Source: Guyanagaster necrorhizus (lineage: Eukaryota > Basidiomycota > Agaricomycetes > Agaricales > Physalacriaceae). From it: a DNA stretch of 64,000 nt. Shown here in pieces: positions 1 to 63,069 of the stretch (the stretch's first letter is position 1; the number at the start of each line of letters is the position of its first letter). Position numbers and translations under genes: made by a program. The notes beneath the pieces are model-generated. The model saw only the letters and a list, made by a program, of their open reading frames with translations. It searched no databases and was not told where the DNA came from. The stretch spans positions 1 to 64,000 of the forward strand of contig NW_025064928.1 in assembly GCF_019112545.1 (NCBI RefSeq), written 5' to 3'.

Positions 1-163
1 GAAGGATACTCCTGTTCACTTCTCTGACAGAACTCCGTTCTGTCCATCCAGATCCTTGGGCTCCGACTCAAGGGTGACGTTGCCAATAGCTTCGTCAATG
101 CCCATGCACTCCGCCGGACTCCACGCGTGCACTCAAGCCCACTTGATTGGCACGTTCCTAACA
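1..163 (+). repeat. 3' end of a family B LTR, cut by the window edge
   Basis: This stretch matches the last third of the family B LTR seen complete at 29805-30305 and 37005-37504, and ends at the same terminal ...cctaaca. It keeps many CpG sites (for example ctccgccggactccacgcg) that are TpG or CpA in every other copy here, so it is the least mutated, probably youngest, LTR in the window. The DNA after 163 is not the family B leader. It is therefore a solo LTR or the 3' LTR of an element lying to the left. Confidence 0.8.
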
Positions 164-1003
164 GCAGCCTAGAAGGTAAAAAAGAAAAAATAACAGAAGG
201 AGTTGGAAAAGAAGAGAGAGAAATTTCAGCTAATAGTAAAAAAATAAGCAAAAAAGATAATAGAAACAGCAAAAGAGGCAGCTCATCAGGAAGTTGTGGA
301 GAGACAGGCTGCAGAAGTTATAGTGAGAGCAGTAGTTATATTGAATATGCTATGAGAGAGGTTGGTTATAAAAAGCAGATTGCAGATGATCTCTATAGAA
401 GCTATTGAATTTAAATGATGCTAGATTCTAACAGCTTATTTCAGTCTTAGACTCAGTCTCTATTTTAAAAAAGTAACTAATCTTATGCCATCAGAGTCTG
501 AGGATAGATCTAACAGAAAGAAGCAGAAAGCAAAAGTTCAAGTTTAGGAGTATGATAGATAACAGTAAGGCAGAAATAGCAGCCAGTCAAAGTGAGTATT
601 TTGTTTTCTTTGTTTGATTCTACTGAGTCTTATTTCAGAAAGCTGCATGTACTGTTGTCAAGATAATGCATGATATTATATATGTCTGACAACTGAAAAT
701 ATCAGTTATAAACAGACTTATGCCTGTTGCAAAATCAAAAAAACTGCTTATTTATTTAACAAGAGTAGATGTCTGTGGTATAGTAACTATTCTTCAAGAT
801 AATTATAGATCAAATGATATATTATCTCTCTTAGAGTTGTTTTTAAAGTTTAAGCTGAAGATATAGAAAAAGACTTGACTGAGCTTCAAAAAAAAGAAGA
901 ATCAGAAGGTGAAAGATCTTCAGATAGTAATATTGAAAAGGTTGAATAAAAATGTGAAGAAGTTGAGAAAATAAAAAGAGTGATAACAATTGAAAAGATA
1001 ATG
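164..1003 (+). pseudogene. Broken copy of the family B antisense Zn-cluster/coiled-coil gene
   Basis: Reading left to right, this aligns with the reverse strand of 36700-35850, the accessory gene of the complete family B element. It begins in the Lys/Glu-rich coiled-coil part. A clean intron is visible at 592-638 (GTGAGT...TTTCAG, 47 bp). After it comes a Cys-rich segment (about 640-770) homologous to the C-terminal Cys cluster of the other copy, including the shared residues KIKKTA followed by FNK. An acidic tail (about 850-1003) is longer than in the other copy. Several stops interrupt it and two cluster cysteines have become Tyr. An ATG at 127 lies inside the LTR and is not its real start. 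The copy belongs to a reverse-oriented family B element whose pol end follows at 1040-1480. Product function is unknown. Confidence 0.65.
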
Positions 1004-1039
1004 TATTTGTATAGTAAAAAATATATATATATAAATAAT

Positions 1040-1480
1040 TATAAAATTTGACTTGAAATTATGGAAGAGTGATTGAAATAGTAGTCATAATAGTTGAAAT
1101 TGAAACAGTAAAATAAATGCTAATAGTATCCAAAATAGTGTTGTATTAAAAAAAATATATTTAAATGATCTTAAATAAGAGCTTCAGCTTGTCTGGATAT
1201 TTATGATGAAAATCTTTAATAAATTTATTAGTGGGAAATTCAGAGGCTAGTAATCACACAAATTTTTTGTTGATACTTTTATAACCTAGCCACTGAATTT
1301 TATAAAGTCATAGACAGCAAAACTGATAGTCTAGCTTAGAGTCAAAGATTTAGGTTATTTTATAATGTTTCTCTTTATTGACTTTGACTAAAGACAGTAA
1401 GAATTGGATTCAGTTAAAAATAATATTTTCTTTCATAAATTTCAACTATAATTGAGTATCTCATGTTTGAAAAAAAAAAA
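1040..1480 (-). pseudogene. Family B pol C-terminus with chromodomain, degenerate
   Basis: The reverse complement aligns with 35380-35670 of the complete family B element, covering the stretch after integrase and the chromodomain-like end of pol. Shared words include the segment corresponding to cagaggctag...cattggta and the attcagtt...tttcaatt block. It is heavily AT-shifted and full of stops. It continues the same reverse-oriented element as the antisense gene copy at 164-1003. The rest of pol is not visible to the right. Confidence 0.6.
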
Positions 1481-25511: not shown

Positions 25512-26008
25512 TGTTAGGAACATGCCAATTGATTGAGCTTGAGTGCACACATAGAGACTGGCAAAGTGCATAGACATCAACAAAGCTATTAGCAATATCA
25601 CCCTTGAGTCAGGGCCTAAGGATTAGAATGGACAGAACAGAGTTCTGTCAAAGAAGTGAAGAAGAATATCCTTCAGAGTGAAATCCAACAGACAAGATAG
25701 AGAGAAGCTGAAGTGAGTGTGAAGTATAGATGGCTATGCAAGTTGATATTTGAACTGAGTAATTACAATACTTATATATAGTTTATATACTATTAGTAGT
25801 TAATTCTGAGTTAAGGTCTGTTGGATTCTGGTGTCAGCTGTTTGCTACCATATTCAGAGTCTAGATACTAGAATATGAAATACAGATATAAAATGACGAT
25901 AGTAAAATAAAATTGGTAGATACTGAAAAGTGGTGGATTCTGATAAGTCTTATGATTAGCTTCATCATTGGCTGAAATGATGCAGAGGCTGATAGCATGT
26001 ACATAACA
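25512..26008 (-). repeat. Family B LTR, reverse orientation
   Basis: 497 bp. The reverse complement runs from tgttatgtacatgct to ...ggcatgttcctaaca. No matching 5 bp duplications flank it. The DNA to the right (26009-26281) is the reverse of the pre-LTR part of family B, so this is the 3' LTR of a reverse element. Confidence 0.85.
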
Positions 26009-26281
26009 GTATCCCTCTATTAGCATTTTTACTCTCAAGAGCATAGATTCTGATGCCTAGTAGGAGATACATGATGAAAAAAAATTTTATTCTATGGAAA
26101 TTTTGTCTTTGTTTTCAACCACTATTTTTATCTTATAACAATATTATTTCTCATCACATATTATCATTCAAAAACTCCTAATCCTTTGGTGCAGGAGTCT
26201 ACCTCTAATAGCCTTCAAAAGGCCAAGAAATTATTTTGTTTAAAATATCAAACTGTGAAAGATATATATGCAGAGGCTATA
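26009..26281 (+). pseudogene. 5' part of a family B antisense gene copy
   Basis: Aligns with the reverse complement of 36750-37004: the spacer next to the LTR, then the N-terminal codons of the antisense gene, including the region matching its TPKPLV and EEAKELF words (about 26180-26250). It is cut at 26282 by a family A LTR. It is the third copy of this gene in the window. Confidence 0.62.
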
Positions 26282-29804: not shown

Positions 29805-30305
29805 TGTTACATACATGCTGCTGGCCTCTGTATCACTCCAACCAACTACAGACTCAATCATGGAAATCCAGTAGACTCTGACTGCTCTCTATTACCTATT
29901 AATTTTATTTTTTACCATTATTATTTTACATCTGTATTTCACATTGTAATATCTAAACCTCAAACTTGGTAGTGAATATTGATATTGGAACCCAATAGAA
30001 CCTGACTCAAAATTAACTACTATTAGTATATAAAGTTATGTATAACTATTATAACTACTCAGTTTGAACATCAACTTGGATAGCCATCTACACTTCATAC
30101 TCACTTCAACTCCTCTCTATCTCATCCATTGGATTTTGCTTTAAAGAATACTCCTCTTTATTTTTCTGATAAAACTCCATTCTATCCATCTAAATTCTTG
30201 GGCTCTGACTCAAGAGTGACATTGCCAATAGCTTTGTTGATGCCCACACACTCTGCTAGTCTCTGCATGTGCACTCAAGCCCACTCAATTAGCATGTTTT
30301 TAACA
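29805..30305 (+). repeat. Family B 5' LTR
   Basis: Starts tgttacatacatgctgctgg and ends ...tttttaaca. TATA-like tatataaag lies near 30028, with the R-start candidate agtttgaacat at 30061-30071. Confidence 0.9.
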
Positions 30306-30411: not shown

Positions 30412-31830
30412 ATGTTTTCCATAGAAGACATCTCAGCCTCCATCTCAAAGAAACAACCAGGTCTTTTCAGATTAGCCTCCAATGAAGGACAACCTTCCTG
30501 TAGAGAAACCTACAATCACTCTGGCTTTACTGCCTGCTAATCTAATTATGATAATTCCTCTAACTCTTTTGATGCCACCAGTATCTCAACTAACAAAGCC
30601 TGATGTATGATATCTGAACTGATCCCCCAACAGACTCCTTATTCTTAAGTAACACACATAGGAATTCAGACAGCTCAGACTCAGAAGACAGAGGTGAAGA
30701 CACCTCCACCTATACTCCCATCTGACAGAAACCAGATAGTAACCCATCAAACCCTTTTTCAGATGGTCTAGGTGGTCCAGATGATCCCAATAGCTCAGAC
30801 AGCTTCAATGGCCCTGCAGAAAGCAACAATCTAAACCAATAGGACATGCTCCTAGAATTCATGAACCTACTATGAGGAGTCTCCACTTCTCTCAATAATC
30901 TTAAACCAGCCACTATTCATACCAAAGTCAAGGAACTGAAACTATTTGATAGCTCCAACTTTCACAAACTGAAGGCCTTTATTATCTCTCTTCAATTGAA
31001 CTTTAATGACAGATCTATTGTATTTGCAACAGATGCTAGCAAGGTCAACTATGCTATTTTCTTTCTAGCTAGCATCATGCTCAACTAGTTTGAACTAGAC
31101 ATTCTTAATCTCAACCTGTGAAATCCATCAGTCTGGCAATTCTCCTACATGGCTTTTTTAGATAAGCTTCATAGCAACTTTGGCCCCTTTGACACTATCA
31201 GAGATGCCAAAGATACATTAGAGCATCTCCAGATATGTGATGAAGATCAAATCATAAAGTATATAGTCCAATTCAATCAGTATGCCTCACAAATCAGATA
31301 CAGAGATAACTCTCTCCACTATGCCTTTTACCATGGCCTCTGCACCCATATCAAGGATGATATAGCACACTATAGAAAGCCAAACAACCTTCATGATATG
31401 CACTTTCTTGCCCAAGAACTTGATGCTTGCTACTAGATCTGAAAAACCAAAATTGTCTGTGAAAACTGAGACAATAAGGCCTCCAACTAATCCTCCAACC
31501 TCAAATCCAAGGGATCCAACTCTTCTTCCTTGGACTCCAGCTCCACACCAAAATCTACCACTCCTAAGCCCTATACTGATAAGCTAGATAAAGATAGCTG
31601 TCTTACTCAGAAAGAAAAGGATCACTAGCACCAAAACAATCTTTGCATGTTCTGTGGAGCCAAACACAAGACTGAGGACTGCAACAAGCAGAAGACAGCA
31701 GTCTCTGCTAAGAGTTGTGCAGCTGAAGTCAACACTGCTCTTATAAAACCAGCTCCAACAGAGTCAGAAAACTAGAAAGCAACTTTGTTTTCTCTATGTG
31801 AGTTCAGAGTTGCATTGACTCTATTCACAC
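30412..31830 (+). pseudogene. gag: Family B gag
   Basis: Probable start ATG 30412 (MFSIEDISASISKK). After a polar, Ser/Asp/Asn-rich region (30650-30850) comes the capsid-like domain (about 30920-31430: KELKLFDSSNFHKLKAFI ... FLDKLHSNFGPFDTIRDAKD). A Ser/Thr linker and a zinc knuckle near 31650-31690 (CMFCGAKHKTEDC, spacing CX2CX3HX4C) follow. There is no hydrophobic N-terminal helix, unlike family A Gag. Frame changes and TGA/TAG/TAA stops interrupt it. Confidence 0.78.
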
Positions 31831-34800
31831 ACTAAAGATCATCACCCTCAATGCAACATCCCTTTCAAATCACTCCTTCCACATTCTCCTTTCAGTAGAA
31901 TTACCAACTACTATAGAATCTGATGATTCTTCAGCTTGTACCATTCTGTGTTTTTTTGCTTTTATTGATTCTAGTTTTAGTTACTGCTTTATTGACACTA
32001 AGTATGTAGCTGCCAATAAAATCTCCATTAAAACTATCTCTAGCATGCAACTTTGATTATTTGATGGCTCCATCAGAAGCTGTATATCTCAAATTGCAAC
32101 CATCCCCATCTGTTTTCTATTCAGAGACACCTTCTCCATCAACTTCTATGTTACTCCTCTAGATTTGTCTTGCAATCTTGTCCTAAGATACAACTGGCTC
32201 TCTCACTACAATCCACTGATTGACTGAGCTGAGAACAGTATCACTTTCTGCTCAAGCTACTAGAATCTCATTCCAACTAATTCCACAGCCTTCACTGCAT
32301 CTCAGGGACTTCTGTGCCTGCAGAACAACAGTCCATCTCTCTCTGAGCCTTTCAGCTCAATTCCAAGACTTCCATGCCCACTGAACTCTATCAGTCTAAC
32401 TTTTAGGGCTTTACTCTATTCCAAATCCACCATGAGTAGCTGGCAGACTCTATTCCTGTATGAACTCATTTATTTCTATCCTCCCTCAGAGTCTTTTACT
32501 ACAAAAGCACACCTAAAGATCTCTGTCATATCTGCTGCTGCATTTATCTGAGCCAGTGCAGAAGGAGATGCTCAGCAGTTCACACTGCAGTCTTTCTTGC
32601 CTAAAATTGGAGCCAAAGCTGCATTTGCAGAACCAGTAGACCTTTCACCAGTGCCAGTAGAGTACCATAATTTTGCAGATGTCTTCAGTGATACTCTCTC
32701 CAAAAAGCTACCTGAACACAGACTGTATGATCTCAAAATCAACCTTGAGGAAGGAATATCTCTACTGCTTGAACCCATTTATTTTCTCTTAAAATCTGAA
32801 CTCAAGGCTCTATAAGAGTTTATTGATGATAATCTGTGCAATAGATTTATTACTTTATTCTGCTCTCCATATGAGGCTCCAGTTCTGTTTGTCAAGAAGA
32901 AGACCAGTAAACTCCAACTCTGTGTTAACTATCATGGCCTAAACAAAATCTCCAAGAAGGATTGCTACTCTCTTCCTCTCATTTCTGATCTCCTTGACTC
33001 TGCTCACTCTGCATGTATCTATACCAAGCTCAATCTGTGACATGTCTACTATTTTGTTCACATAGCCAAAGGAGATAAATGGAAAACAGCCTTTTAGACC
33101 CATTATAGTTTCTTCAAATGGCATGTTATATCTTTTGGCCTCACAAATGCTCCAGTGGCATTTCAACAATTTGTGAATAATATATTCTCAGATATACTCA
33201 ATATATTAGTAGTAGTCTATCTTGACAACATCCTCATATATTCCAACAATCCAGAAGATCACTAGAAACATGTTCATAAGGTCTTATGCAGACTTAGAGC
33301 TAATAGATTCTACTGCAAGAGTTCCAAATGCAAATTCAACCAGAATTCCATAGAATACCTAGACTACATTCTATTATATGAAGGACTTTGTATATCTGAA
33401 GAAAAAGTCAAGACCATTGTTGACTGACCAGTGCCACAAAAGGTCAAGGACATCTAATCTTTTCTTAGCTTCACTAACTTCTACCATTGCTTTATACATG
33501 AATATAGTGATATCATTCTTTCTCTTACATGACTCATCTACAAGGAAACTCCATGGAAATTTGATGATAAATACTTGGCCATCTTTAATGAGTTGAAACA
33601 GGCTTTTACACATGCCTCTATTCTTACCCACTGAGTCCTTGATCAAAAGATAGTAGTAGAAACTGATGCCTCCAATTATGCAATTGCAGCTATTTTCTCC
33701 ATCTACCTTGAAGATGATAAAATTCATTCCATCACTTTCTGCTCTCAGAGCCTCCACAATGCCAAGCTCAACTATGACATCCATGACAAAGAGCTCCTAG
33801 CTATTTTTGAAGCCTTTAAACATTGGCAGCACTATCTTGAAGGCTCTGTGGACTCTATCAATATTATAACAGACCACAAGAACCTTGAATACTTCACCAC
33901 TACCAAGATTCTAACCTGCCAACAGATCTGCTAGTCCAAATATCTATCCCAGTTCAATCTAGTAATTTGGTTTCACCCTGGAAAACTTGGTGGAAAACCA
34001 GATGCACTCACTAAATGATGGAATATCTATCCTAAAGAGGAAGATAGCTAATATGCCCAAGTCAACCCTTATAATTTCCAATCTGTATTCACCCAAGAAC
34101 AACTCTTTATATCACTCTGTGCAACCTATCTTGAGGACCCTATCCTATAGGCTAGTGCTATTATAGATATTGACAAACTTCACACTGATATCAAACAAGT
34201 ATAATTTTTTTGACCCTACATGCTCCAATGGTCTCTATCAGGCCAAGGCCACTTTTGAATCCTCTCTCTCTCAGTGGTCCATTGATGAATCCAACATTCT
34301 TTGGTTTGAAGGCCACATTTATGTCTCAGACTCCAATAATCTCTGTCTCCATATACTTCAGAACAATCATGACCATATCTTGACAGGCGACTTTGGTCAA
34401 AACCAGACATTAGAGCTAGGTCTAACAGGACTACACCTGGCCAAAGATGTGTGAATATGTTCAACACTATATTAAGTCATGCACAATTTGTGGGTGCAAC
34501 AAGACACCTAGATACTGCCTCTATAGGTTACTCAAACCTCTATCAGTTTCTGAATGGCCATGAGATTCTATTTCTATGAATTTTATTAAACAACTACTAG
34601 ACTCCAACAGATTTACCACCATTTTAGTAGTCATTGATCAAACTAGCAAGTAAGCCATCTTCATTCCCACATATGATACCATTAACTCTATGGAGCTCAC
34701 CCAACTTTTCCTTATTTATATCTTCTCTAAACATGGGATACTCAGTCATATCACCTCAGATTGTGGCTCCAAATTCATTTTTTAATTTACTCATGCTTTA

Positions 34801-35667
34801 GTCATAGCTCTTGACATGGAACTCCACCTTACTTCTGGTTACTATCCAGAGGCTGATGGACAAACTGAATAAGCAAATCAAACTCTAGAACAGTATATCT
34901 GCATCTACTGCTTCTACCAACAGGACAACTGGAACACCCTCCTATCTATTGAGTTCACCTATAATAATGTCTTTAATGTGTCCACTGGAATTTTCCTATT
35001 TTTTGCTAACAAGAGTTATCACTCCAACATCACTGTTCACTCTGAAAGAGACATTGCCTCCACTTAAGCCTGAGACTTTACAGTCAACCTTGACAAGCTC
35101 TACCAAATACTGAAAAATGAAATTTCCAAAGCTCAGTCTCATTACAAAGCTCAAGCAGACAAGCATCAGATTCCAGCACCTTTATTCACAGTAGGCAACA
35201 AGATCTACTTCAGTGCCAAATATATTAAAACCATCTGCTCAACCAGAAAATTCTTAGAGAAATACCTTGGTCCCTTCAAAATCATAGCCTAACCTGGTTC
35301 CCACTCCTTTATGCTGAAGCTGCCACTGGATTTTCAGTCTATTCACTTGGTCTTTCATGTGTCACAATTGAAACCCATAGAAGAAAACACTATTCCTAAC
35401 TGAATCCAACCACTGCTGCCTCCAGTTGAAGTCAATAGAGAAGAACATTTTAAAATAGCTCAAATCTTTGACTCTAAACTGGACTGCCAGTTCTGCTGCT
35501 CACTGCTATATAAGATCCAGTGGCTAAGCTATGAAGGTACCAATGAAGAGTTTGCTTGGTTGCTAGCCTCTGAATTCTCTACCAATGAATTTATTGAAGA
35601 ATTCTACTATCAATACTCAGACAAACCAGGACCCTTATCTAAAGTCACTCAATTATTCTATTCTTGA
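31831..35667 (+). pseudogene. pol: Family B pol (protease to chromodomain)
   Basis: Protease near 31960 has FIDSS where the catalytic DSG is expected (GGT to AGT). RT spans about 32590-33260, with FVKKKTSKL and a catalytic box changed to YLDN at 33218-33229. RNase H is at about 33640-33900 (ETDASNYAIAAI). Integrase spans about 34460-35100: the first catalytic Asp is changed to Asn (SMNFI), and the second region TSDCGSKF is kept. The chromodomain lies at 35500-35640 (YKIQWLSYEGTNEEF). The resemblance is to the Tf1/Tf2/sushi group. It ends at TGA 35665-35667. At least three catalytic residues are lost. Confidence 0.82.
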
Positions 35668-35846: not shown

Positions 35847-36874
35847 TTATAAGGAAGCAGAACTCAACAGATCTGCACTGAAACCTGAACTCTCTCCCTG
35901 CCTCTTCAACTCCTTATTGAATGAACAGGCAGTTTTCTTGATTTTGCAGTGAGAACAAGTACACTCTCAACTAGCACCTTTAGTTACTGATCATGCATAA
36001 CACCATGCACCATCTTGATGACAGCATATACAACTCTCTGAAAAACAAAAGCTAAGTCAAATCACATAAGAAAACTAAGACACTTATTTTCACTATCCAA
36101 CAACTCTTTACCCTCCACTGGCCCTGCAACTTCCAACTTCACCTGCTTTTTAGGACTAGCAACCACCTCTGTCCCACTGCCATTCACTACACTCCTTGAT
36201 CTGAACTTGCATTTATAGCCCTTTTCTGCTGGATCTGCCACCCTCCTCTTCCTCTCTCACACCCTCTTCCTCCTCTCCAGGATCCTCTCAGATTCTTCTG
36301 ACTCATTATCTCACTTGATCCCCTTGCTCTGCTCATCATTGGACTCCAGAAGCATATGATCAGTCACCCTCTTAAAGCAAAGACTGGAGTCAGAACTAAA
36401 CCATTCTGCTAGCACTTGATGCAGATGAAAATCAATGGCTTCTACAAGGGTTATTTGCAATCCATCCTCTGTAACCATCCCCTTCTGCCCTATCTCTGAG
36501 ACCTGAGCTCTTGCTGCAGCCTCCATGGCCTCTCTCTCCTCAGCCTCTCTTCAAGCTGCCTCTCTCAATGCTTCTTTCACTTTCTTCACTCACCTCTCCA
36601 CTGTCTACTTGACCTCCTCCCTCTTCTTCTCCAACCCCTCTTGCTACTTCTTTCTCTGTGCCTCCTAGGCCACATAGTCCATCTAGACCTTCTCCTCTCT
36701 TTCTTACTCCCTTTTTCACTCTAAGTGGACTCCTACAGCCTCCACATACTCTTCCTTTATGGTCTGCCATTCTAGATGAAATAATTCCTTAGCCTCTTCA
36801 GGGCCATCAGAGATGAATCCCCTCACTAAAGGCTTGGGAGTACATGAGCAATGATATGCAGCAGGAGATGACAT
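35847..36874 (-). pseudogene. Antisense accessory gene of family B: coiled-coil and Zn2Cys6-like protein
   Basis: Start ATG 36874-36872, stop TAA 35849-35847. Exon 1 is 36874-36112, the intron 36111-36038 (GTAAAG...TTTCAG, 74 bp) and exon 2 36037-35847. Phases agree and give 317 codons in one register. About 50 N-terminal residues (MSSPAAYHCSCTPKPL...) precede a Glu/Lys/Arg/Gln-rich probable coiled coil (residues about 55-120). A mixed region follows, then a basic segment. Exon 2 encodes two CX2CX6C units (CICCHQDGAWC and CSHCKIKKTAC) about 14 residues apart, the pattern of fungal Zn(II)2Cys6 clusters. About twelve internal stops all sit where CGA, CAG or CAA is expected. The family is not recognised; a DNA-binding or regulatory role is inferred from the Cys pattern alone. 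Confidence 0.7.
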
Positions 36875-37004: not shown

Positions 37005-37504
37005 TGTTACATGCATGCTGCTGGCCTCCATGTCACCTCAACCAACTATAGATCCAATCACAGAAACCCACTGGACTTCAGCCACTCTCCATTATTTATT
37101 AATTTCATTTTCACTATTATCATTTCACATCCATATTTCACATTGTAATATCTAAACCTCAAACTCAGTAGCAAATATTGATATCAGAACTCAATAGAAC
37201 CTGACTCAGAATTAGCTACCATTAGTATATAAAGCCATGTATAACCATTGTAACTACTCAGTTTGAATATCAACTTAGATAGTTATCTACACTTCATACT
37301 CACTTCAACTCCTCCCTACCTCATCTGTCAGATTCTGCTCTGAAAGATACTCCTCTTTGCTTCTCTGACAGAACTCTGTTCTGTCCATCCAAATTCTTGG
37401 GCTCTAACTCAAGAGTGACATTGCCAATAGCTTTGTTGATGCCCATGCACTCTGCCAGTCTCCATATATGCACTCAAGCCCACTTGATTGGCACATTCCT
37501 AACA
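37005..37504 (+). repeat. Family B 3' LTR
   Basis: 500 bp, tgttacatgcatgctgctgg...gcacattcctaaca. R-start block agtttgaatat at 37260-37270. Slightly less C-to-T damage than the 5' LTR. Confidence 0.9.
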
Positions 37505-60304: not shown

Positions 60305-63069
60305 ATGGACGACTCGTCGCAATCTAGACAGCTCTTCCCGCCTCTCAACATTAATCTCCCTCCATTCCGCTCCCAACCCCAGCAGTACCAGTCGCCACAG
60401 CACGAGTATCCTCAGCAGCACCAGCAGTATCAGCAGCAGGAATACTGGCAACAGCGCACTTCCAGTTCGAGGGATGATATACACCAGCAGCAGGATATCA
60501 AACCAGTGATGCAGACTCAGCAGCCAAAGCAGGAGGGCGGTGTCGAAGATGGAATGCCCTCCACCAGTGATTTTGTGAAAAAGCTCTACAAGTGCGTCGC
60601 TTTATTTCCCTTCTTTGCTCTCTCTCACCCTAGCCCAGGATGCTAGAGGATCAGTCCTTCCAACACGTCGTCTCGTGGGGTCCCCAAGGCGATTGTTTCG
60701 TGGTCAAGGTAACTAGTCCATCTCGCCACTCAACCTCTGCTAACAATACCAGGACATGAACGAATTCACAAAATCAATTCTACCACGCATGTTCAAACAC
60801 TCGAATTTCGCCTCGTTTGTGCGTCAACTGAACAAGTATGACTTTCACAAAGTCAAGAACACGGATGACAACCAATTCGGCGAACATGTGTGTTCAATAC
60901 CTATTTCTTTCTTTCCATTTCCTCATCGTTCGTTAGAGCTGGACATTCCGGCATCCGGATTTCCATGCTGACCGGCGCGATGCACTAGAAAACATCAAGC
61001 GCAAGGTCCCCACATCGCGGAAATCGCTCCCCGCTCCACAACCGACATCATCACGGCCTCTACCGCCGTCTCTCGCTTCTCCGTCAGCATCGCAGACCGA
61101 CTATCTCCAGGCCCAAATAGAGCGCCTCACCCAGGCCCAAGAAGAGATGTCGGCGCATGTACGGAACCTAGAGCGAAATTACCACGACGTTCTCGTGGAG
61201 ATGGTCGGATTCCAGCGGAATATGGCGCAGCAGGACGGGCTGATGCAAAACCTCATTCAGTATTTTTTGCAAGTTGAGAATGGTGAGTGTCGTTGAGTGA
61301 TTTCTTGCATCCCCCCCGTCCCCCCGCCGCTGCTTCATATGTTGTCGTCTCGTCCGCCATATTTCTCATTCGTCATATCCAGAAAACAATTATGGATGAG
61401 CGAACGACGCGCTCATTTTTTCTTTTTCCTATTTTATTATACGATATATCCACCGTCATTTGACCCCCCCCACTCCCTCTCCATTTTGTCGCTCTGTATC
61501 AAAATCCACCTGTGTACTGACTACATGTTTTCTTTTCTATAATACCTTCAACTTCATCAATACAAATCTCTTATAAAACTTACTCAGGCAAATCGAAACG
61601 CGCGTCCTCGTCTCAACAGCAAGCGATGCTACAGTCGCCTTCCGACCCATCCTCTTCAAATCCGAACCCGTTCCTACAGCAACACGAAACGCTCCGAATG
61701 ATGAACCCAGATAGTGATGTTGCCCGCGCGTCCCTTATGCAAATGAACGAAATTTCGCGGCGGCAAATGGAATTCTCCCAACCTTCCTCGTTTGACGACC
61801 GGCCGCCATCACGGATATGGACTGCCGCCGCCAATGCAGGACTCATCAACCCCGACGGGTCTGTCAAAGGCGCACCCCCAGTCCCGTCTATATCTGGCGA
61901 GAAGATCACCTCGCGGGTGGAGGCCCTGCAGCGTATCGAGGAGCTGCAGCGGCTGCGTATGGGAAGCGCGCCGCCAAATATCCCGCCACTACCCCCGCCT
62001 CCCCAACCGCAAGAGGAGATGGTCATGCCGACGTCGTCGACAGGAACGCTCACTTCGCCAGAGGGTACTCCGCCGTCGTTTGCGTGGCCTGAAGAAGGCG
62101 ACATGGGCCAGCTTGGAGGCGGCGATCCAGGTAACCAGGTGGCTGGGGCAGGACACGAGGGTCTGCAGGTGTATACTGTTGGGCACCTGATGCCCAAGAG
62201 CGCGGTAGACGACGCGAATGGTAATTGGACGTATGATCCGACGATGTGGGATCCTCAGCAACAGCAACAGCGGCAGCAACAGCCACAGCAGCCACAGGCG
62301 AGCACGTCGCAGCAAGCGCTCCAACCCGCCTCGTCGTCGTCCCAACAGCGGCTCCGGGTACGGCGGAGCACGTACGTTCCCGGGTGGGCGGTGCCTCCAC
62401 GGGTGCTGCTCGTCGACGACGATGCCGTGAGCCGAAAACTGAGCAGCAAGTTTCTCCAAGTGTTTGGGTGCACGATCGACGTGGCCGTTGACGGTGTCGG
62501 AGCGGTGAACAAGATGAATCTTGAAAAGTACGATTTGGTATTGATGGTATGTTCCGTGTATGTTTCTCTGCCTTTTTTTTTTCTTTAATTGAGCTCTCCA
62601 GGACATTGTGATGCCGAAACTGGACGGTGTCTCTGCAACGTCGCTGATCCGGAAATTCGACCATATGACGCCTATCATCAGTATGACGAGCAACTCGAAG
62701 CCCAACGAGATCATGACGTACTATTCGTCGGGGATGAACGACATTCTGCCAAAGCCGTTCACCAAGGAGGGGCTGCTAGGTATGCTGGAGAAGCACCTGA
62801 TGCACCTCAAGGTGATCCAGGAGATGGCGAGCGCGAGGGTGTCGCGACCGCTGGGACCAGGGGATGTGGGGCCGTACATGGGGAATGGGGAGGTGGACAA
62901 TGAAGGGCGAGTGAATCCGCTGGCGGGTATGGGCCTCACGGACGAGCAGTACAACATGATCCTGCAGAATATCGTGAACGGGGAGACATTTGTAGGGGAG
63001 AAGCGGTCATTGGAAGAAGACGATGACGGGCGGGAAGGGAAACGAGGTCGATTCGAGGTGATTGAGTAG
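60305..63069 (+). CDS. SKN7: SKN7-like transcription factor (HSF DNA-binding domain plus response-regulator receiver)
   Basis: Exons 60305-60591, 60639-60708, 60753-60887, 60937-61282, 61588-62546 and 62602-63069 give 754 residues. All introns are GT-AG with consistent phases. In fungi Skn7 receives phosphate from histidine kinases through Ypd1 and controls oxidative, osmotic and cell-wall stress genes in the nucleus. The HSF-type domain spans about residues 90-187 ([37 protein letters not shown] at 138-152). A coiled coil lies at about 218-279. The receiver spans about 551-670: acidic pocket D556-D557, phospho-acceptor D600 (LVLMDIVMP, the first codon of exon 6), T628 and K650. Gln-rich tracts precede both domains, and the C terminus is basic (GKRGRF). 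The start is the ATG of MDDSSQS; an earlier in-frame ATG (60224) would add 27 unlikely residues. The product name is strong, the symbol by homology. Confidence 0.93.
61283..61587 (+). other. Unusually long intron 4 of the SKN7-like gene
   Basis: 305 bp against 44-55 bp for the other four introns (60592-60638, 60709-60752, 60888-60936, 62547-62601). It separates the HSF/coiled-coil exons from the Gln-rich/receiver exons and holds C-runs (61313-61325, 61462-61471) and an AT-rich stretch with tattatacgatatatcc. The donor GTGAGT and the acceptor ACTCAG are good. A promoter or regulatory role is possible but unproven. Confidence 0.75.

What the first reader, a model, noticed from the sequence alone, without database searches (positions are those of the whole stretch)
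35847..36874. Family B retrotransposon carries a spliced antisense gene with a Zn2Cys6-like cluster
Between the pol stop and the 3' LTR, the minus strand holds one register of 317 codons over two exons with a GT-AG intron in consistent phase. Every interruption is a stop explainable by a C-to-T change. The product combines a coiled coil with two CX2CX6C units, the spacing of fungal Zn(II)2Cys6 DNA-binding clusters. Gypsy elements with extra antisense ORFs are known mainly from plants; I do not know of this gene type in a fungal chromovirus. It could regulate the element's own LTR or counter silencing (speculative).
Basis: partly seen in the sequence, partly recalled or inferred. Interest (0 to 1): 0.88.

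Follow-up and report, generated by a model that had tools for sequence, protein, structure and literature searches.

The report
Antisense zinc-cluster gene inside fungal retrotransposon
A family of retrotransposons in what is likely a mushroom-forming fungus carries, on the strand opposite to its usual genes, an extra conserved protein-coding gene with a predicted intron; honey-mushroom (Armillaria) genomes encode relatives of its product, which would likely bind DNA and may let the element regulate itself.

Summary
The antisense gene is real, but the window copy is a wreck: its splice donor is mutated, 12 stops interrupt it and about 309 bases of exon 2 are missing. Sister copies in the same genome show the gene: two exons, a 48-54-base intron (GTAAGT...AG), 428 residues. 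Six of 20 less mutated copies are open from start to end. It lies antisense between pol and 3' LTR of an LTR element with 5-bp target duplication, integrase and a probable chromodomain. Transversions against 15 further copies are silent more often than chance (best p = 1e-7): the protein was selected. Armillaria and Desarmillaria hold 25 homologues, three named Zn(2)-C6. The product has a long helix, six cysteines (CX2CX6CX14CX2CX6C) and a five-heptad coiled coil, the layout of dimeric zinc-cluster proteins; yet Pfam's Zn_clus does not recognise it, so it is Zn2Cys6-like, not a proven member. Antisense extra genes are known from plant elements and from Botrytis (brtn); none with a zinc cluster turned up in six literature listings. 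No transcript was seen, and self-regulation is inferred: the LTR shows no excess of CGG triplets.

The parts
29805..30305 (+). 5' LTR of the element (TGTTACA...TAACA)
   Evidence: direct repeat of 37005-37504; ends read by eye
31122..31436 (+). gag fragment (Retrotrans_gag)
   Evidence: PF03732, E 3.6e-6
33098..33265 (+). reverse transcriptase fragment
   Evidence: PF00078, E 5.1e-12
33635..33934 (+). RNase H fragment
   Evidence: PF17917, E 1.4e-26
35404..35667 (+). chromodomain-like C-terminal end of pol, decayed here
   Evidence: no Pfam match in the window; the corresponding stretch of sister copy L050 matches Chromo PF00385 at E 0.0027, below the cut-off
36088..36874 (-). antisense gene, exon 1 (787 nt, phase 1; 10 stops)
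36038..36087 (-). predicted intron of the antisense gene (50 nt; donor mutated to ATAAGT, acceptor CAG)
35847..36037 (-). antisense gene, exon 2, shortened by a deletion
35913..36035 (-). six-cysteine cluster of the antisense product
   Evidence: tblastn with the L041 product, 68% identity over 41 residues, E 1.7e-11
35912..35913 (.). junction of a ~309-base in-frame deletion that removes the second coiled coil
   Evidence: 4 bases here against 302-313 in 18 of 20 copies; 2 of 20 give no data
37005..37504 (+). 3' LTR of the element
212..971 (+). second, more diverged and decayed copy of the antisense gene, in a minus-strand element at the window's edge
   Evidence: tblastn 36-48% identity, E 3.6e-9 and 5.2e-7; LTR match at 1-163 and inverted pol-end match at 1110-1445
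26150..26281 (+). remnant of a third copy (N-terminus only)
   Evidence: tblastn 48% identity over 44 residues, E 6.4e-10

Best explanation
The element family carries a conserved gene antisense to gag-pol between pol and the 3' LTR, with a predicted intron, and its 428-residue product is predicted to be a dimeric zinc-cluster-like DNA-binding protein that likely regulates the element's own expression. Shown: place, strand, kept splice signals, open copies, excess of silent change, relatives in Armillaria and Desarmillaria, six conserved cysteines. Predicted from sequence: a long charged N-terminal helix, zinc binding, dimerisation through a five-heptad coiled coil just behind the cysteines, nuclear location through lysine/arginine-rich stretches. 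Inferred and untested: that an antisense RNA starts in or next to the 3' LTR (the ATG lies about 120-130 bases from it), is spliced, and that the dimer binds DNA of the element or its surroundings and tunes transcription, much as HBZ of HTLV-1 acts on its provirus.
For: DNA search of this genome: 42 matches from 40 scored candidates, the window included; protein search: 139 matches from 98 scored. Of 20 fetched copies 18 keep pol beside the gene, 18 run on to the end of the 3' LTR, 16 both. L050 has LTRs of about 500 bp, 96.4% identical, GTCTT on both sides, integrase domains and a sub-cut-off Chromo match. Splice signals kept in 52 (donor) and 54 (acceptor) of 56 rows, with introns of 48-54 bases that are not all multiples of three, so only splicing keeps one frame. 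Six of 20 less mutated copies are open throughout. Transversions against L041: all 15 further copies L051-L065 give omega below 1 (0.15-0.70; 12 of 15 at 0.25-0.38) and all 20 copies L009-L028 0.20-0.46; e.g. 30 silent and 34 replacement in L051 where 18% silent is expected. Homologues: ARMOST_04143 at E 1.1e-44 from the family profile, and 24 more proteins found with its cluster region, E 7.9e-102 to 6.5e-19, three of the 25 named Zn(2)-C6. All six cysteines are invariant or at least 90% kept in 22 aligned sequences. Ten heptad positions 321-352 hold only L, I and V; a helix is predicted there at pLDDT 81-95.
Against: No transcript was seen; no RNA data are on hand. Zn_clus does not match two intact products at E up to 1 and matches 1 of 25 relatives at E 0.12; no element copy listed is among 69 Zn_clus matches of the genome (compared by eye). 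The basic half of the cluster comes second, not first; swapping the halves gains 2-3 bits for L041, P0024 and P0025, nothing for P0001, and the median of 16 falls from 9.0 to 8.3. Of 400 shuffles with cysteines fixed, 16 score as well as the L041 cluster. Both predicted structures give the cysteine part no confidence. CGG/CCG triplets are not in excess in the LTRs. Three close copies give omega of 0.66 (L040), 0.99 (L042) and 0.55 (L044) on 11-21 transversions; the window row gives 0.76 but is misaligned at its deletion. The compared copies share ancestry.
Confidence: 0.5

Rival explanations
1. The gene is a real accessory gene, but its product works on the RNA, the capsid or the pre-integration complex (a structural or transport protein) and is no transcription regulator; the cysteines only stabilise the fold.
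For: Much of the product and of its Armillaria relative is predicted helix; Zn_clus not matched; no CGG excess in the LTR.
Against: Six cysteines in two CX2CX6C units followed by a coiled coil are the layout of zinc-cluster DNA-binding proteins (recalled), and three of 25 relatives carry that name in UniProt; two of these have loops of 7 and 8 residues.
Confidence: 0.27
2. A host gene captured long ago and carried as a passenger; the selection seen is left over from its host life.
For: No likeness to gag or pol domains in Pfam; it has a predicted intron, which being antisense would not be spliced out of the element's genomic RNA (reasoned).
Against: 139 matches in one genome, omega_tv of 0.25-0.38 in 12 of 15 further copies and several relatives per Armillaria species suggest that selection acted while it multiplied.
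Confidence: 0.13
3. No gene: a purine-rich strand with few stops that merely looks coding.
For: Shuffled sequence of the same dinucleotide content gives 168-189 open codons on average and up to 477.
Against: Excess of silent transversions, which C-to-T mutation cannot make, phase-keeping splice sites in 52-54 of 56 rows and annotated relatives in another assembly with the same kind of N-terminal head (by eye).
Confidence: 0.02
4. The antisense RNA, not the protein, matters: it pairs with gag-pol RNA and damps the element or feeds silencing.
For: Proposed for antisense transcripts of plant elements (PMC7264820, passages).
Against: Does not explain selection on the amino-acid sequence; the gene and pol point at each other without overlap in the window and in L050.
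Confidence: 0.08

Closest known systems
ARMOST_04143 and 24 related uncharacterised proteins of Armillaria ostoyae, A. solidipes, A. borealis, A. novae-zelandiae and Desarmillaria tabescens
   Same: 42% identity over 238 residues around cluster and second coiled coil; same kind of head (MS...Y..S.TPEPY, by eye) and N-terminal helix
   Different: Lengths from 312 to 566 residues, 13 of 25 over 500, with an extra C-terminal part; their genomic surroundings could not be read here, so their place in an element is not shown
brtn of Boty (BcGypsy1), Botrytis cinerea
   Same: Additional antisense gene of a fungal Gypsy-type element (title of Zhao et al. 2011, seen only as cited in PMC7264820 and PMC8365987)
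   Different: Its sequence was not at hand and was not compared; whether it has an intron or a zinc cluster is unknown to me
TRP28 antisense ORFs of Retand, gene23 of Grande (plants)
   Same: Antisense, between pol and 3' LTR, kept over copies; predicted DNA binding (TRP28) or nuclear location (gene23) (PMC11963269 and PMC7264820, passages)
   Different: Other protein family, plant hosts; Retand is described as a non-chromovirus lineage; the word intron does not occur in the main text of PMC11963269
HBZ of HTLV-1
   Same: Product of an antisense transcript begun in the 3' LTR, with a leucine-zipper dimerisation part, acting on transcription (abstract starts)
   Different: bZIP, not a cysteine cluster; a retrovirus of people; no sequence comparison made or claimed
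Zn(II)2Cys6 transcription factors (Gal4, AlcR; PF00172)
   Same: Two CX2CX6C units followed by a coiled coil (Gal4 layout recalled); AlcR is among six weak sequence matches in the PDB, residues 262-303, E 2.3
   Different: Below detection by PF00172; loop of 14 residues between third and fourth cysteine; basic half second

Membership tests
Ty3/Gypsy chromovirus | LTR-bounded element with target-site duplication | tested here: met
   L050: LTRs of about 500 bp, 96.4% identical, GTCTT at both ends; window LTRs at 29805-30305 and 37005-37504
Ty3/Gypsy chromovirus | RT and RNase H before integrase | tested here: met
   RT then RNase H in the window, integrase nearer the 3' end in L050; seen on two copies, not on one
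Ty3/Gypsy chromovirus | Chromodomain at the C-terminus of integrase | tested here: inconclusive
   PF00385 over its whole length in L050 at E 0.0027, 18.0 bits against a cut-off of 25.1; none in the window
[quoted passage not shown]
   16 of 20 fetched copies show both neighbours; L014 and L024 lack pol, L011 and L026 do not run through the 3' LTR
Antisense additional ORF of LTR elements (aORF-3R) | Transcribed | not testable with these tools
   no RNA data
Zn(II)2Cys6 (PF00172) | CX2CX6C - loop - CX2CX6C | tested here: met
   cysteines 265, 268, 275, 290, 293, 300; loop 14 here, 7 and 8 in P0024 and P0025
Zn(II)2Cys6 (PF00172) | Score above Pfam's gathering cut-off | tested here: not met
   0 of 2 intact products at E up to 1; 1 of 25 relatives at E 0.12
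Zn(II)2Cys6 (PF00172) | Basic residues in the first CX2CX6C unit (recalled) | tested here: not met
   the KIKKTA-type unit is the second; in 12 host clusters read from 20 fetched places it is the first, by eye
Zn(II)2Cys6 (PF00172) | Coiled coil for dimerisation behind the cluster (recalled) | tested here: met
   L/I/V at ten heptad positions 321-352; helix in the model
Zn(II)2Cys6 (PF00172) | Binds zinc and DNA | not testable with these tools
   needs purified protein
HBZ-like antisense factor | Basic leucine zipper | tested here: not met
   no bZIP match in Pfam for two intact products; a cysteine cluster stands before the coiled coil

The most novel reading that the evidence does not exclude
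Gypsy elements of Armillaria-type mushrooms encode their own zinc-cluster transcription factor: a spliced antisense gene, driven from the 3' LTR, whose dimer controls the element, the fungal counterpart of HBZ, built from the DNA-binding module that fungi use for their own genes but with its two halves in reverse order.
Probability: 0.3. Interest if true: 0.82.

Novelty: new variant of a known kind. Interest (0 to 1): 0.62.

Why it matters
If true, a fungal retrotransposon lineage carries a DNA-binding regulator of its own, antisense and spliced, as some retroviruses do. That could explain a set of unnamed multicopy Armillaria proteins as parts of mobile elements, warn annotators who would count them as host transcription factors, and give a simple system for the open question of why many LTR elements keep antisense genes: open and decayed copies lie in one genome and relatives in other species, so selection, expression and binding can all be tested.

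Tried and rejected
Protein search with the read-through of four decayed copies found nothing; words from the coiled coil may have swamped it (7993 candidates). The profile of four open copies found one protein, and a search limited to that protein's cluster region listed 25, itself included. Search of viral contigs with A4: no relative. Structure of P0001 (mean pLDDT 51) and its fold search (8 matches, none with E up to 0.001) told nothing about the cluster; the model of exon 2 was not fold-searched. Idea that the halves of the cluster are swapped: inconclusive. Idea that the LTR is rich in CGG triplets: not so in L050's two LTRs. Idea of a programmed stop before the chromodomain: 11 TGA, 4 CAA, 3 TAA, 3 without a clean codon of 21 rows, as decay of one codon would give. 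Six literature searches (only 79 listed rows of some 1200 papers holding enough terms were seen, as titles and abstract starts) showed no zinc-cluster antisense gene in a fungal LTR element; Boty's brtn was met through a citation and followed. Subscription papers are mostly not held. In one search the window row is misaligned across its deletion and is not used as evidence.

Full report
What is there. Around 29.8-37.5 kb lies an LTR element in + orientation: LTRs at 29805-30305 and 37005-37504, with gag, reverse transcriptase and RNase H pieces between them. CpG is absent from it (observed/expected 0.00), while the 59-64 kb part of the window has 1.02, so the element has been hypermutated. On the minus strand, from ATG 36874 to the stop at 35847, lies the reported frame.

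The window copy is broken in three ways. Its donor reads ATAAGT where 52 of 56 aligned rows read GTAAGT. It has 12 stops before the deletion, of which 11 can be reached by C-to-T or G-to-A steps from codons of six less mutated copies. And it lacks about 309 bases of exon 2: where it has 4 bases, 18 of 20 fetched copies have 302-313; the other 2 give no data.

The gene. A protein search of the same genome gave 139 matches from 98 scored candidates, many of them without a stop. Of 20 less mutated copies taken from it, 6 (L029, L030, L038, L041, L043, L044) are open from the start to the usual end after splicing, five with 428 residues and one with 449 from an upstream ATG; the other 14 lack the usual ATG, are interrupted or cut, or gave no model. 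Exon 1 of 787 bases ends in phase 1; introns in 56 rows are 48 to 54 bases long and not all multiples of three, so only splicing keeps the two exons in one register. The 56 rows stand for 55 copies, as L026 and L047 are the same place. That the intron is spliced in life is predicted, not seen.

It belongs to the element. In 20 fetched copies, 18 have pol beside the gene and 18 run on through the 3' LTR, 16 both. L050 is the clearest: LTRs of about 500 bases, 96.4% identical, with GTCTT on either side, integrase with H2C2 and SH3 domains and a Chromo match below Pfam's cut-off, then the antisense gene pointing towards pol, then the 3' LTR. The gene and the pol frame do not overlap. Part of pol is masked in L049 and L050 and was left so.

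It was selected. C-to-T mutation cannot make transversions, so I compared transversions only, against the open copy L041. If they fell at random, 18% would be silent. In L051 30 of 64 are (p = 1.1e-7), in L052 24 of 52, in L065 27 of 74, in L061 41 of 141. All 15 copies L051-L065 give omega below 1 (0.15 to 0.70; 12 of 15 at 0.25-0.38), and so do all 20 copies L009-L028 (0.20-0.46). Against this, L040, L042 and L044 among the close copies give 0.66, 0.99 and 0.55 on 11-21 changes. The copies share ancestry, so these are not independent tests. A caution: the strand is poor in stops by composition, and shuffled sequence gives long open frames too.

It is wider than this genome. A profile of four open copies found ARMOST_04143 of Armillaria ostoyae at E 1.1e-44, 42% identical over 238 residues. 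Its cluster region brought up 24 more proteins of Armillaria and Desarmillaria, several per species in three species; three of the 25 are named Zn(2)-C6 fungal-type by UniProt. Many begin with the same kind of head (by eye).

What the product looks like. From the N-terminus: a conserved head, a long charged stretch that is one helix in the model of the Armillaria relative, a serine/acid-rich middle with lysine/arginine runs, six cysteines at 265, 268, 275, 290, 293 and 300, and behind them a coiled coil with leucine, isoleucine or valine at ten successive heptad positions. All six cysteines are invariant or at least 90% kept in 22 sequences. AlphaFold2 gives the coiled coil pLDDT 81-95 and the cysteine part about 40. 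Zn_clus does not recognise it, and no element copy listed is among 69 Zn_clus matches of the genome (by eye). Against a profile of 12 host zinc clusters L041 scores 14.4 bits, more than all but 16 of 400 shuffles with cysteines held in place; P0024 17.6 (10 of 400), P0025 23.0 (3 of 400); P0001 only 3.1. The basic half comes second, whereas in the 12 host clusters it comes first. So: zinc-cluster-like, membership not shown.

How it may work. I take it for a dimeric DNA-binding regulator that the element makes from an antisense RNA begun in or near the 3' LTR. The place of the gene, the kept splice signals, selection and the cysteine spacing are shown; splicing, zinc, dimer, DNA and regulation are inferred. 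HBZ of HTLV-1 is the model of the mechanism (abstract starts). One expectation failed: the two LTRs of L050 have 15 CGG/CCG triplets each, no more than 1000 shuffles give, though such proteins can bind other sites.

What is known. [quoted passage not shown] In fungi, Boty of Botrytis has brtn (cited in PMC7264820 and PMC8365987, passages; the original was not read). The listings of six searches showed no zinc-cluster antisense gene of a fungal LTR element. I rate it a new variant of a known kind.

Noticed in passing
window 1-1445: A minus-strand relative of the element is cut by the window's edge and carries its own decayed antisense gene (36-48% identity to the intact product), so the gene may mark a wider group of elements than one family.
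   Followed up: partly
window 25512-26281: An inverted LTR followed by a 44-residue remnant of the antisense gene's N-terminus: a third element of this kind in 64 kb.
   Followed up: partly
20 copies L009-L028 and the window element: At sites that are CpG in at least 5 of 6 less mutated copies, decayed copies read TG 422 times, CA 420, TA 104 and CG 5; other C and G are changed at 12-22%. Heavy CpG-directed mutation of repeats, beside recent copies that largely escaped it.
   Followed up: partly
window 61521-63069: A response-regulator receiver domain split over two frames (an intron is likely) in a stretch with normal CpG: apparently an ordinary host gene beside the repeats.
   Followed up: no
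literature, PMC10799480: That paper calls Armillaria ostoyae an outlier with 31.6% candidate TE-derived proteins; the multicopy proteins found here may be part of that (passage).
   Followed up: no
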